A stretch of 64,000 nt of DNA from an uncultured bacterium (GTDB lineage Bacteria; Patescibacteriota; Saccharimonadia; Saccharimonadales; Saccharimonadaceae), in NCBI GenBank assembly GCA_902761145.1, contig CACWJA010000004.1, positions 62,001 through 126,000 of the forward strand. The letters run 5' to 3'. The notes under the pieces were generated by a model. The model had not been told where the DNA came from. It worked only from the letters and a program-made list of their open reading frames with translations, and searched no databases. Positions 24,637-38,615 of this stretch are shown here, in pieces; position 1 is the stretch's first letter, and every line of letters begins with the position of its first letter. A program made the translations under genes and the position numbers.

Positions 24637-27069
24637 ATGAAAATATCATTGAATTGGTTAAGAAAATATGTAGATATAGATATCTCGGATGAGGATCTTA
24701 TAAGAACGATCGGCGCACGGCTAGTAGAAGTAGAGGGGGTGATAGATGAGACACATAAATATGACAGTATATATATAGTGCGTGTAGAGAAGGCTGAGAA
24801 GATACCAGATACGCATTTGACATTGTGTCAGGTAAATGTAGGTGATGTGGATATACCTAAAGTCCAAAAAAATGAAGACGGGCTAGTGCAGGTGGTGTGT
24901 GGAGCACCGAATGTGCGAGAGGGAATGCTGGCGGTATGGATCGCTCCAGGTGCCGTGGTGCCGGCGAGCGTACACGAAGATGCGCCTTTTGTGATAGGTA
25001 AGCGCAAAATGCTAGGTAAGTATGAATCTAATGGGATGCTAGCTGGAGCGGATGAGCTGGATTTTGATGACAAGCACGAAAAAATAGCAGAGGTAGATTC
25101 AGCGGTGGCGCAGCCGGGTGATACGTTGGCGGAGGTGTTTGGTTTAAATGACAAGATACTTGATATCGAGAATAAATCACTTACGCACCGACCAGATTGT
25201 TTTGGTGTGATAGGATTTGCTAGGGAAGTGGCTGGAATATTGGGAAAGAAATTTGTAGAGCCAGATTTTTTGCATGAAGAAACGGTGTTTCCAGAAGGAT
25301 TTTTGACGGTAGAAAAAGACGGGCCAGCAAGCCGTGATGCTACTCTTGATATAGAGATTACCAATGCTGAGATTTGCCCACGGTATACTGGTGCGGTGCT
25401 GAAAGTCACGGATGCCACAGCAGAAGATAAGTACTTATCTGAGATACAGATATTGATAGCAAAGTCTGGCATGATGCCCGTATCGCGCATAGTGGATGTA
25501 ACCAATTACTTGATGTTACTGACTGGGCAGCCGCTGCATGCATTTGACTATGATAAGTTTTTGAAAGTGGGTGGTAAAGATACTGCTAAAATATTGGTAA
25601 GGGAGGCTCAGCCTGGTGAGACGCTGGAGCTACTAGATGGCAAGACTATAGAGTGTATACCTAGTGATATACTAATAACTTCTAATGGCGTACCAGTGGC
25701 ATTAGCTGGTGCGATGGGCGGTAAAAATACCGAAATAGACGAAAACACCAAGAATATTTTGTTGGAAGCGGCGACATTTAGCTTATATCACTTGCGTAAG
25801 ACGCAGATGGTGCATGGGATATTTACTGAGGCTATTACTAGATTTACCAAGGGCGTGCCAATGAGTGGTACTTTTAATGTGCTGGCGGAGGCGGTAAAAG
25901 AGATGAATGCTAAGCCGCTAGAATTAAGAGATAAAGCATGCGTACCTTTTGCTACGAATATGGTGGAAGTATTAGTGGAAGATATTAATAGACTGCTGGG
26001 CACAGAGTATAGTAGAGGTTTGATAATAAAGACTCTTGAAAATGTAGGATTTATGATAGTAGATGCAGGAGATAGCCTGCAAGTTACGGTGCCAGCGTGG
26101 CGAACGGATATACATATCAAGGAAGATATAATAGAAGAAGTGGGGCGACTACTGGGATATGACAATATAGTGCCTACTTTGCCGCTACATCAGACGGCAG
26201 AGCCTAACAGAATGTGGGAGCTAAAGAAGAGAATCCGAGAAATGATGTGGCGACTGGGCGCGAATGAGCTACTTACGTATAGTTTTGCGGCAGGGAGATT
26301 ACTGGAAAGGGCCGGGCAGGATCCGAAGAATTCGTACAAGATAGTGAATTCTATCTCGCCAGAGCTGCAGTATGTGCGGCAGTCTATAGTGCCGAGCTTA
26401 TTAGATAAAGCTTATGTTAATCAGAAGATACCTTTCGATACGTTTGCATTATATGAAATGAATAAGGTATATCAGAAAGAGTGGGGGATGAATGATGAAA
26501 AAGTGCCAGTAGAAAAAATGCAGATGGGGATGGTGCTGGCAGAGCGAAAAGGTATTGGGACCGCGTATTATAAGGCCAAGATATATATGGCGAATATTCT
26601 TGACGAGCTAAATATTACTGCAAAGTATTTGCCAATGAAAGATGGCGACGAAGCGGTAAATCGGCCGTTTGAACCAAAGCGGAGTGCTATAGTGATAGCG
26701 GATGATGGGGCTGTGCTGGGTGTGGTGGGAGAATTTAAAAATTCCGTACGGCGAAGTTTCAAACTAGCGGAATATACAGCTGGATTTGAGCTAAATCTTG
26801 ACACAGTACTACAAAAAATAGGTGGTAAAAGGGATATTTACTTAGGTGAAGTAGAAAAACGTGATCTTACGGTAAAAACCACTGGTACATATGCCGAGCT
26901 TATAGATAAGATAAATACACTATTAATGCAGAATAGCGTAAAAGCGATAATTACGCCGATATCTATATATCAGCCAGAGGGCGCAGAAGAAAAGAATATT
27001 TCGGTGCATCTGGAATTCCATCAAAAAATTGATGATAATATAATGGAAGAGTTGGAAAAACTATCTTAG
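24637..27069 (+). CDS. pheT: Phenylalanyl-tRNA synthetase beta subunit
   Basis: 810 aa from the ATG at 24637; AAGGAG lies 5 nt before it and overlaps an in-frame GTG at 24631, which is therefore unlikely to be the start. Domains in order: N-terminal MKISLNWLRKYVDI, EMAP/OB domain (about 40-150), the B3/B4 editing region with SLTHRPDCFG, B5 domain, catalytic-like core and a C-terminal ferredoxin-fold anticodon-binding domain. Forms the PheRS holoenzyme with PheS. Confidence 0.95.
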   Translation: MKISLNWLRKYVDIDISDEDLIRTIGARLVEVEGVIDETHKYDSIYIVRVEKAEKIPDTHLTLCQVNVGDVDIPKVQKNEDGLVQVVCGAPNVREGMLAVWIAPGAVVPASVHEDAPFVIGKRKMLGKYESNGMLAGADELDFDDKHEKIAEVDSAVAQPGDTLAEVFGLNDKILDIENKSLTHRPDCFGVIGFAREVAGILGKKFVEPDFLHEETVFPEGFLTVEKDGPASRDATLDIEITNAEICPRYTGAVLKVTDATAEDKYLSEIQILIAKSGMMPVSRIVDVTNYLMLLTGQPLHAFDYDKFLKVGGKDTAKILVREAQPGETLELLDGKTIECIPSDILITSNGVPVALAGAMGGKNTEIDENTKNILLEAATFSLYHLRKTQMVHGIFTEAITRFTKGVPMSGTFNVLAEAVKEMNAKPLELRDKACVPFATNMVEVLVEDINRLLGTEYSRGLIIKTLENVGFMIVDAGDSLQVTVPAWRTDIHIKEDIIEEVGRLLGYDNIVPTLPLHQTAEPNRMWELKKRIREMMWRLGANELLTYSFAAGRLLERAGQDPKNSYKIVNSISPELQYVRQSIVPSLLDKAYVNQKIPFDTFALYEMNKVYQKEWGMNDEKVPVEKMQMGMVLAERKGIGTAYYKAKIYMANILDELNITAKYLPMKDGDEAVNRPFEPKRSAIVIADDGAVLGVVGEFKNSVRRSFKLAEYTAGFELNLDTVLQKIGGKRDIYLGEVEKRDLTVKTTGTYAELIDKINTLLMQNSVKAIITPISIYQPEGAEEKNISVHLEFHQKIDDNIMEELEKLS

Positions 27070-27152
27070 CCGTAGATTAAAATGAACTTAGTTTTTCAAA
27101 CCATAATTTTTATAACATGTGACGGTCACCCGCAAACAATGTGATAGTCTGG

Positions 27153-27298
27153 CCATTACATGATTTGCCGTATTTCGGAAGCTACGCTTTGGTGCAATCG
27201 AAGATTATACACCAAAGCTCCGCCCCTCCGGCGCCAAAACCGCACCTAAAGGTGGGTTTTGGCTTAATGTTCCTCAATACTGGCAAATCATATAATGG
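27153..27298 (+). repeat. Structured intergenic repeat, copy 1
   Basis: Closing stem: CCATTA(C)ATGATTTGCC (27153-27169) with GGCAAATCAT(A)TAATGG (27282-27298), continued by GTATT/AATAC, a TC/TC internal loop and GGAA/TTCC. Inside are three hairpins: CTTTGGTG/CACCAAAG (27187-27217), CGCC-CCTCC-GGCG (27221-27233) and CCAAAACC...GGTTTTGG (27234-27262). The conserved CTTAATGTTCCTCAATA follows. Copy 2 at 36181-36324 shares the loops but has an unrelated, equally complementary closing stem. Orientation is unproven; it lies 3' of pheT. Confidence 0.75.
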
Positions 27299-27350
27299 TG
27301 GTTTATTACTTCTCCGACAATTAATTGTAAAAAATAGTGTCAAAATGCTA

Positions 27351-36176: not shown

Positions 36177-36180
36177 GGGT

Positions 36181-36324
36181 ATTGCTTATAATTCATTATT
36201 ATTTCGGAAGCTGCGCTTTGACGCAATCAAAGATTATACATCAAAGCTTCGCCCCTCCGGCGAAAAGAATCGCCCTGAAGGCGATTTTTTCTTAATGTTC
36301 CTCAATAATAATGAATTACGCAAT
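36181..36324 (+). repeat. Structured intergenic repeat, copy 2
   Basis: Closing stem: ATTGC/GCAAT (36181-36185, 36320-36324), then AATTCATTATTATT (36190-36203) with its perfect complement (36304-36317), the TC/TC internal loop and GGAA/TTCC. Inner parts match copy 1: a CTTTGA/TCAAAG hairpin, CGCC-CCTCC-GGCG, a third hairpin (AATCGCC/GGCGATT followed by a T-run) and CTTAATGTTCCTCAATA. It lies between the convergent glycosyltransferase and leuS genes, so it may also terminate transcription. Confidence 0.75.
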
Positions 36325-36335
36325 ATATCCTATTG

Positions 36336-38615
36336 TTAAACAACGATGTTGAGGATTTTGGCTTTGGGTACGAAAATGGTCTTTTTGATGCCGGGTTCGG
36401 TGTATTTTTTGATCTTGTCGTCGGCAAGAGCAATGGCGACGACTTTTTCTTCGTCGGCGAGATTGGATGCGTCTATTGTAATTTTGGAACGAAGTTTGCC
36501 GTTGACTTGTATGATGATTTCGGCTGTATCGCTAGTGAGGTATTGGTCTTCCCATTTTGGCCATTCGTCGTCTGAAGATAATTTTTCTAGCATTTCGGAA
36601 GCTAAGTGCGGTGCGAAAGGTTTGAGTAGCTTGGCTAAGACTATGAGATCTTCTGTAATGGCGCCGACTTTGTAGAGTTCGTTGACGTATTCCATAAGTG
36701 CGGCTACAGCTGTATTAAAATTGTAGCGATGAATATCCTCAGTGACTTTCTTGATGGTACGATGACGAGTGGTGACGGTATGATCTGTATCGCTCACTGG
36801 GGTGGCAAAGCATAGTGTCCAACAACGATTGAGGAACCTATATACGCCACCTACGGAGCGAGTATCCCAAGCAGCATCTTGATCGTATGGGCCAATGAAC
36901 ATTTCGTAGGTACGAAGAGTATCCGCACCGTAGCCATCATTGATTACATCTAGTGGGTCTATGACGTTACCTTTAGACTTACTCATTTTTTTGCCGTCTG
37001 GAGCATTGATATAGCCATTATAAAGAAGACGTTTGATAGGCTCGCGGAAAGGCAGATAACCTTCGTCGGCAAAGAATTTGCACCAGAAACGGATGTATAA
37101 TAAGTGCGCTACGGCATGATCGGCACCGCAGTAATAATCTACTGGTTCCCAGTATTTGATAGCTTCTTGGCTCCATGCGGCTGTGTTGTCGTGAGGTGAA
37201 GCGTAACGCCAGAGATACCAGGACGAGCAGGCATAGCCGTCTAAGGTGTCTGTTTCGCGGGTCATTTCTTCTACTTGACCGATGGCTTCGTTGTAGATGT
37301 TGACTTTGAGCCAGTCGGTGGCTTTGGCTAGGGCGCTGCGGCCGGTATTGTCTGGCTGATAATCGTCTACTTCTGGAATGAGTACTGGGAGTTGGTCTTC
37401 TGGGATAGGGTGAGGATTGCCTTCGCTGTCGTAGGCGATAGGGATAGGGCAGCCCCAGTAGCGTTGACGAGAAATGAGCCAATCGCGCATACGATAGGTG
37501 GTTTTGAGCGTGCCGAATTTGTCACGATCGCAGAGTTCTGTTTCGACGATTGGGAGATCGAATTTTTCTGCGAATTCGTGGTCGCGGTCGTCCATAGCTG
37601 GTACCGCCATGATGGCGCCAGTACCGTAACCAGCTAGTACGTAGTCTGCTACCCAGATAGGGATCTTGGCCTTGGTGGCAGGATTGATGGCATATGAGCC
37701 AGTGAATACACCTGTTTTTTCTTTGTTTTCTTGACGTTCGATTTCGGATTTTTTGAGTGCGGCAGCTTTGTATGCTAGGACTTTTTCGCGGGTATCGTCG
37801 GTGAGGAGACTCTCTAATTGGCCGTATTCTGGAGCAACTACTAGAAAGGTAGCACCATAAATGGTATCTGGGCGGGTAGTGAATACTGTGATGTGGGGTG
37901 CGCCACTTTCTACGGCAAAGTCTATCTCGGCGCCGACGCTACGACCGATCCAGTTTTTTTGCATTGTTTTGATTTTGTCGGGCCATTCTAGGTGGTCGAT
38001 CTCGTCGAGTAATTCGTCGGCGTATTCGGTGATTTTGAAGAACCATTGCTTCATCTTCTTTTTTTCGACTTCGTGACCGCAGCGCCAACATTTGCCGTTT
38101 TCAACTTGTTCATTGGCAAGGACGGTTTGATCTACGGGGCACCACCATTGGTAGGATTCTTTTTGGTAGGCGAGGCCTTTTTTGTAAAGCTGAAGGAAAC
38201 ACCATTGGGTCCAACGGTAATATTCGGGATCGCTAGTGTTGATCTCGCGGGACCAATCGATAGCAAAGCCTAGGCGTTTGGCCTGTTTGCGGAAGTTGTC
38301 GATATTAATCTTGGTGACTTTTTGTGGGGCGGTGCCTGTCTTGATGGCGTAGTTTTCGGCTGGGAGGCCAAAAGTATCATAACCGAATGGACGCAAGACA
38401 TTGAGCCCCTGCTGAGCGTGGAATCGCGCAAGAACATCTACGATGGTAAAATTGCGGACGTGACCGACATGAAGACCAGCTCCAGATGGGTATGGGAACA
38501 TTTCGGCGAGCATTACTTTGGGGGTGCCTGGGGCTTCTTTAGCCTTGAATGGGGATGTTTTCTCCCAGATTTGTTGCCATTTTTGTTCTATCTTGAGCGG
38601 TTCGTATCTTTCCAT
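36336..38615 (-). CDS. leuS: Leucyl-tRNA synthetase
   Basis: 759 aa class I synthetase on the minus strand, shorter than E. coli LeuRS (860). PYPSGAGLHVGHVRNFT gives the HIGH motif. A zinc ribbon is kept (WWCPVDQTVL, then CWRCGHEV). The CP1 editing domain is present: VFTTRPDTIYGATF and GYGTGAIMAVPAMDDRDHEFA. KMSKSKGNVIDP is intact. An anticodon-binding domain and a short C-terminus follow. The start at 38615 is 6 nt from an extended TATAAT box. Confidence 0.96.
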   Translation of the reverse strand: MERYEPLKIEQKWQQIWEKTSPFKAKEAPGTPKVMLAEMFPYPSGAGLHVGHVRNFTIVDVLARFHAQQGLNVLRPFGYDTFGLPAENYAIKTGTAPQKVTKINIDNFRKQAKRLGFAIDWSREINTSDPEYYRWTQWCFLQLYKKGLAYQKESYQWWCPVDQTVLANEQVENGKCWRCGHEVEKKKMKQWFFKITEYADELLDEIDHLEWPDKIKTMQKNWIGRSVGAEIDFAVESGAPHITVFTTRPDTIYGATFLVVAPEYGQLESLLTDDTREKVLAYKAAALKKSEIERQENKEKTGVFTGSYAINPATKAKIPIWVADYVLAGYGTGAIMAVPAMDDRDHEFAEKFDLPIVETELCDRDKFGTLKTTYRMRDWLISRQRYWGCPIPIAYDSEGNPHPIPEDQLPVLIPEVDDYQPDNTGRSALAKATDWLKVNIYNEAIGQVEEMTRETDTLDGYACSSWYLWRYASPHDNTAAWSQEAIKYWEPVDYYCGADHAVAHLLYIRFWCKFFADEGYLPFREPIKRLLYNGYINAPDGKKMSKSKGNVIDPLDVINDGYGADTLRTYEMFIGPYDQDAAWDTRSVGGVYRFLNRCWTLCFATPVSDTDHTVTTRHRTIKKVTEDIHRYNFNTAVAALMEYVNELYKVGAITEDLIVLAKLLKPFAPHLASEMLEKLSSDDEWPKWEDQYLTSDTAEIIIQVNGKLRSKITIDASNLADEEKVVAIALADDKIKKYTEPGIKKTIFVPKAKILNIVV

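What the first reader, a model, noticed from the sequence alone, without database searches (positions are those of the whole stretch)
27153..27298. Two-copy structured element with a covarying closing stem (copy 1)
The element here and its partner at 36181-36324 share loops almost base for base (GGAAGCT.CGCTTTG, GCAATC.AAGATTATACA, CGCCCCTCCGGCG, CTTAATGTTCCTCAATA). Their closing stems are unrelated in sequence (ATGATTTGCC here, AATTCATTATTATT there), yet each is almost perfectly self-complementary over more than 15 bp. The first inner hairpin also covaries (CTTTGG/CCAAAG versus CTTTGA/TCAAAG). That is the signature of selection on RNA structure. The CCTCC loop equals the anti-Shine-Dalgarno core, which hints at mRNA or ribosome interaction; that part is inference. 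I know of no RNA family with these loops.
Basis: seen in the sequence. Interest (0 to 1): 0.87.

Follow-up and report, generated by a model that had tools for sequence, protein, structure and literature searches.

The report
Mobile palindromic DNA element in Saccharibacteria
The two look-alike folded sequences are members of a family of about 150-base jumping DNA palindromes that has spread through one genus of tiny parasitic bacteria and, in related species, sits in-frame inside essential genes as an extra protein segment.

Summary
The host is a Saccharibacteria genome of 872 kb with 24 copies at E<=1e-3, by BLAST and by covariance model. The family occurs in 11 of 60 sampled genomes of the genus and in none of 40 from other genera. 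Covariation is strong: 38 of 46 pairs have compensatory changes and 93% of cells pair. However, G-U cells (131) do not exceed A-C cells (176), copies lie in every gene context, and in a relative with young copies the elements are flanked by perfect 8-bp target-site duplications (7 copies). The outer stem is therefore the terminal inverted repeat of a small non-autonomous transposon, with ends resembling IS6/IS26. In relatives, copies lie inside dus, truB, valS and ychF, always on the same strand and in the same frame, adding about 47 codons without a stop. These are copies whose closing stems look "unrelated", and the stems there covary although this changes the protein. This resembles Rickettsia palindromic elements, but with maintained rather than decaying stems; I found no previous description in Saccharibacteria. 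The RNA-family and anti-Shine-Dalgarno readings are not supported. The mobilising transposase was not found.

The parts
27151..27300 (+). copy 1 of the palindromic element (3' of pheT, whose ORF ends at 27069)
   Evidence: CM hit 154 bits, E 5e-42; fold z -9.0
27152..27174 (+). copy 1 closing stem P1, left arm (terminal inverted repeat region)
   Evidence: MFE structure; family covariation
27177..27180 (+). copy 1 P1b left (GGAA, pairs with TTCC; covaries as GGGA/TCCC in other copies)
27186..27218 (+). copy 1 hairpin P2
27222..27232 (+). copy 1 hairpin P3, loop CCTCC (family consensus CCTNC)
27233..27263 (+). copy 1 hairpin P4
27270..27273 (+). copy 1 P1b right (TTCC)
27276..27299 (+). copy 1 closing stem P1, right arm
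36177..36328 (+). copy 2 of the element, between convergent genes: glycosyltransferase (ends 36176) and leuS (minus strand, stop codon end at 36336)
   Evidence: CM hit 124.5 bits, E 2.5e-33; fold z -7.3
36179..36203 (+). copy 2 closing stem P1, left arm
36206..36209 (+). copy 2 P1b left (GGAA)
36215..36247 (+). copy 2 hairpin P2
36248..36264 (+). copy 2 hairpin P3
36265..36289 (+). copy 2 hairpin P4, terminator-like (stem followed by T run)
36298..36301 (+). copy 2 P1b right (TTCC)
36304..36326 (+). copy 2 closing stem P1, right arm

Best explanation
The element is a non-autonomous miniature transposon of about 145-150 bp (MITE-like) of one Saccharibacteria genus. Its outer stem is, or descends from, its terminal inverted repeats. 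SHOWN: it is repeated within and between genomes; young copies in one relative have precise ends and 8-bp target-site duplications; orthologous sites lack it in relatives; the fold (P1, P1b, P2, P3, P4) is kept by double changes; some copies lie in frame, without stops, in dus, truB, valS and ychF. INFERRED: a DDE transposase supplied in trans moved it (ends resemble IS6/IS26); the palindrome is kept at the DNA level, either because the hairpin matters as DNA or because template-switch events copy one arm onto the other, rather than by selection on one RNA strand; in-gene copies are translated and tolerated as extra segments. The two window copies are old intergenic members. They carry in-frame stops and keep no target duplication that I could see, so they are probably not translated; copy 2 may incidentally act as a transcription terminator between convergent genes.
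For: Copy number and spread: 24 copies in the own genome; model hits in 11 of 60 same-genus and 0 of 40 other-genus genomes; all 42 GTDB stretches with the core pattern are Saccharibacteria, none in IMG/VR. Mobility: near-identical copies in assembly JAFWHP with perfect 8-bp duplications at fixed ends: ATGCTTGA, AACCGCAA, AGCCTTGG, TTGGCGCC, TATGATAT, AAACTAAA, GTGATTTT; empty orthologous sites. DNA-level pairing: 131 G-U vs 176 A-C cells; covariation score 0.524 vs 0.195 shuffled and at most 0.134 for slid partners. Coding copies: same strand and frame in four genes, no stop in the coding frame, against a mean of 2.8 stops in 89 other copies; uninterrupted orthologues in relatives. In-gene arms covary while changing the protein: dus ACAATTCCCAC (G080/G103/G120) vs ACGACCTTCGC (G122) with the other arm matching; truB AGTATAAAATCCACTAA vs AGTACAAAATTCACTAA likewise.
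Against: The 8-bp duplications are seen clearly in one relative, not in the window copies. The similarity of the ends to IS6/IS26 is 12 of 14 bases at best, so it is a lead. The G-U test lacks a matched control beyond 16 tRNAs found by a program that itself favours pairing (22 G-U, 0 A-C), and some A-C cells may be misaligned. Covariation counts sequences, not independent events. Translation of the in-gene copies is inferred from open frames only.
Confidence: 0.78

Rival explanations
1. A structured non-coding or cis-regulatory RNA family: the transcript folds and the fold is the function, for example mRNA 3'-end protection or termination.
For: Strong covariation in 38 of 46 pairs, conserved loops and junctions, stable folds on both strands, a terminator-like P4 in copy 2, and more than the background share of convergent contexts (29 of 83 vs 30 of 164 gene pairs).
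Against: G-U does not exceed A-C; gene contexts are mixed, with orientation relative to tandem neighbours near even (21 same, 14 opposite); copies are mobile with target duplications; most genomes of the genus lack it.
Confidence: 0.12
2. A ssDNA-hairpin element moved by a REP-associated or IS200/IS605 tyrosine (HUH) transposase, like REP/BIME sequences.
For: Small, structured, intergenic and multi-copy.
Against: No Y1 transposase (PF01797) in the own genome or in any of the 21 other same-genus genomes searched; target duplications of 8 bp are not expected from this class (general knowledge).
Confidence: 0.03
3. The in-gene copies are removed before they appear in protein (intron-like splicing or ribosome bypass), and the closing stem serves to bring the junctions together.
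For: The closing stem in genes differs per site and stays paired although the amino acids change; core proteins tolerate it.
Against: All in-gene copies found are a multiple of three, stop-free and in one frame, which removal would not require; intergenic copies have the same fold.
Confidence: 0.05

Closest known systems
Rickettsia palindromic elements (RPE; Ogata 2000, 2002, as reviewed in PMC10969869 and PMC6649704)
   Same: About 150 bp, palindromic, several families, found both between genes and in frame inside unrelated core genes, encoding a conserved peptide.
   Different: A different phylum; arms here stay complementary by compensatory change, whereas RPE are reported to lose repeat identity with time (PMC6649704); clear 8-bp target duplications seen here. 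Sequence relationship not tested.
MITEs of the IS6/IS26 family (PMC7986276)
   Same: 8-bp target duplications; ends GGCATTGTTGCATA here vs GGCACTGTTGCAAA (IS15-delta I, PMC5328509), 12 of 14 bases; no transposase gene inside.
   Different: No parent IS found; I know of no IS6 MITE with a highly structured, covarying interior.
ERIC/IRU-type intergenic repeats
   Same: Similar length (ERIC 127 bp), imperfect palindrome, mostly intergenic, occasionally in genes (PMC2759123, PMC10969869).
   Different: No sequence relation noticed; not tested by alignment.
Coding palindromes in nematomorph mitochondria (PMC6649704)
   Same: Inverted repeats inside protein genes kept paired while the protein stays functional.
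   Different: Those are not a dispersed mobile family with target duplications.

Membership tests
MITE (non-autonomous DDE transposon) | short element without transposase, many dispersed copies | tested here: met
   24 copies of about 150 bp
MITE (non-autonomous DDE transposon) | terminal inverted repeats and fixed-length target-site duplication | tested here: met
   8-bp duplications at fixed ends in the JAFWHP young copies; not retained in the window copies
MITE (non-autonomous DDE transposon) | a parent element or transposase with the same ends | tested here: inconclusive
   none in 530 kb of the own genome; genome with young copies could not be searched
IS6/IS26 family MITE | 14-bp ends of IS6 type and 8-bp duplication | tested here: inconclusive
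   8 bp met; ends 11-12 of 14 bases to one IS6 member, no transposase hit
Rickettsia palindromic elements | in-frame insertion in unrelated core genes with a conserved peptide | tested here: met
   dus, truB, valS, ychF, one strand and one frame
Rickettsia palindromic elements | sequence homology to RPE families | not tested
   no RPE sequences were compared
Rickettsia palindromic elements | inserted segment is present in the protein | not testable with these tools
   open frames only
REP/RAYT system | Y1 tyrosine transposase in the genome | tested here: not met
   PF01797: no match in the own genome
Rfam RNA family | match above the curated threshold | tested here: not met
   0 matches in the window
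structured RNA in general | G-U wobble tolerated more than A-C on the functional strand | tested here: not met
   131 G-U vs 176 A-C

The most novel reading that the evidence does not exclude
The folded nucleic acid is itself the agent: the closing stem is rebuilt to match each new site because the element acts as a folded RNA or ssDNA that is excised, bypassed or copied there. That would be a new kind of mobile element whose terminal repeats are rewritten per site and which can be carried silently inside essential genes.
Probability: 0.08. Interest if true: 0.9.

Novelty: new variant of a known kind. Interest (0 to 1): 0.6.

Why it matters
Mobile palindromes that enter essential protein genes in frame were described as a peculiarity of Rickettsia. 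Finding several such families in an ultra-small Saccharibacteria genus suggests that reduced parasitic genomes recurrently acquire them, and that they can add about 50-residue segments to core enzymes. The covarying but G-U-poor stems also warn that covariation alone does not prove a functional RNA: palindrome turnover in DNA can mimic it, which bears on how new RNA families are called from genomes.

Tried and rejected
REP/RAYT mobilisation: no Y1 transposase. IS26-like transposase by tblastn/phmmer with a query written from memory: nothing. Solo terminal repeats with another interior: none with a convincing partner except one weak pair in L234. Viral origin: no IMG/VR contig with the core pattern. 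Insertion into a pre-existing terminator hairpin as the source of the stem: the leuS site of G001 and G023 has terminators whose stems do not match the copy 2 stem. Anti-Shine-Dalgarno loop: base not conserved. AlphaFold2 of YchF with the insert, to see whether it lies on the surface: mean pLDDT 40.7, unusable. Promoter/terminator scan: no terminator at copy 1; at copy 2 a terminator-like P4. Literature: no paper found on such elements in Saccharibacteria.

Full report
OBSERVATION. Both copies exist as described and fold far better than shuffled sequence on either strand. BLAST of copy 1 against the own genome (872 kb, 11 contigs) gives 24 matches at E<=1e-3; short core patterns give 33 right-end matches against 1 for the reversed control and 61 left-end matches against 28. 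So the pair is a sample of an interspersed family.

FAMILY AND RANGE. A GTDB-wide pattern scan found 42 stretches, all in records titled Saccharibacteria (ruminant gut and other MAGs), and none in IMG/VR. A covariance model from 50 copies found the family in 11 of 60 sampled genomes of the genus, with 1 to 31 copies, and in 0 of 40 from other genera. This patchiness fits a mobile element. The scoring of candidates was capped, so counts per genome are lower bounds.

ANATOMY. Outer stem P1 (about 20 bp), a 2x2 TC/TC internal loop, a 4-bp helix GGRA/TYCC, then three hairpins: P2 (variable sequence, paired), P3 (CGCC-CCTNC-GGCG, conserved) and P4 (variable, paired). In 111 distinct copies 93.1% of cells pair, 38 of 46 pairs show double changes, and the covariation score is 0.524 against 0.195 shuffled and at most 0.134 for slid partners. 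Several copies carry an expanded P3 and two an expanded P2; one lacks P2 by what looks like loss between AGCTNCG direct repeats.

RNA OR DNA. If one RNA strand were selected, G-U should be tolerated and A-C avoided. Observed: 131 G-U and 176 A-C cells (leaving out one misaligned pair); after thinning at 85% identity 93 and 131. Sixteen tRNAs in the held sequence give 22 G-U and 0 A-C, though the finder favours pairing. So the pairing shows no strand preference. A published mechanism, template switching in DNA replication, makes and restores perfect stems in single events (PMC8794818); it fits but was not tested here.

MOBILITY. In assembly JAFWHP near-identical copies lie in unrelated places. 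Their ends are 5'-TGTCTTGTTGCATAATTC ... GAATTATGCAACAAGGCC-3', and the flanking 8 bp are repeated exactly: ATGCTTGA, AACCGCAA, AGCCTTGG, TTGGCGCC, TATGATAT, AAACTAAA, GTGATTTT. Orthologous sites in relatives lack the element: udg/tdk in G001, G009, G080 and G103, and a convergent pair in G103 that is filled in G080, G120 and G121. At the copy 2 site G069 holds only a right-end remnant with nearly the same stem. The ends resemble IS6-family ends (12 of 14 bases between GGCATTGTTGCATA here and GGCACTGTTGCAAA in PMC5328509), and that family makes 8-bp duplications (PMC7986276). No such transposase was found in 530 kb of the own genome.

IN-GENE COPIES. ORF analysis put several copies inside long ORFs: dus (G080, G103, G120, G122), truB (G068), valS (G123) and ychF (G079); alignment added truB in G103 and G123. 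Pfam confirms the genes. The element always lies opposite to the gene and in one frame, giving ..IEEHKGKICDFAAEGAKQCDKISDLSHREASE... Six scored in-gene copies have no stop in that frame, whereas 89 others average 2.8 and only one has none. The own genome and many relatives have the genes without it. These in-gene copies are among those whose closing stems look unrelated to the rest. Orthologous in-gene copies show stem turnover: in dus, ACAATTCCCAC in three genomes against ACGACCTTCGC in G122, with the opposite arm changed to match, altering the protein on both arms. In ychF of G079 the arm runs into codons that align with native sequence (PAEAIF in relatives, PATIF here), which suggests that one arm was rewritten from the other; this is inference.

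OTHER FAMILIES. The same gene sites carry different inserts in other genomes (dus G068/G079, ychF G068, truB and valS in several, leuS in G035/G079/G103). Those in leuS have visible closing stems. So several palindromic families appear to use the same permissive positions.

INTERPRETATION. A MITE-like palindromic transposon with an RPE-like habit of entering genes in frame, distinguished by arms that stay complementary. The window copies are ordinary old intergenic members. Not shown: the transposase, translation of the inserts, and the reason the fold is kept.

Noticed in passing
L120, L122, L126 (leuS of G103, G035, G079): In-frame structured insertions of other families (for example core CCCGTCGTTACGGG ... 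GTCGCGTATG) at one leuS position, each with its own long closing stem.
   Followed up: partly
valS, truB, dus, ychF in G001, G035, G068, G079, G080, G081, G103, G122 (L202-L231): Other inserts of about 30-60 codons at the same sites that hold the present element elsewhere.
   Followed up: partly
window 27098-27150; L022 (C4:41.1-41.4 kb): Another repeat type beside copy 1 (CAAACCATAATTTTTATAAC...CACCCGCAAAYAATG), also seen at C4:41 kb.
   Followed up: no
L029:17304-17408 (C2:117.3 kb): A further repeat of about 105 bp with many copies in G001, G069, G080 and G103.
   Followed up: no
L006 (C2:290.7-290.9 kb): A second, broken left end lies beside a full copy in inverted order at one site; the G069 orthologue holds one copy with an expanded P3.
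   Followed up: no
intergenic site between glycosyltransferase and leuS in the genus (window 36177-36335 in the own genome): Holds a bare terminator, other palindromes, this element, a remnant or nothing in different genomes.
   Followed up: partly
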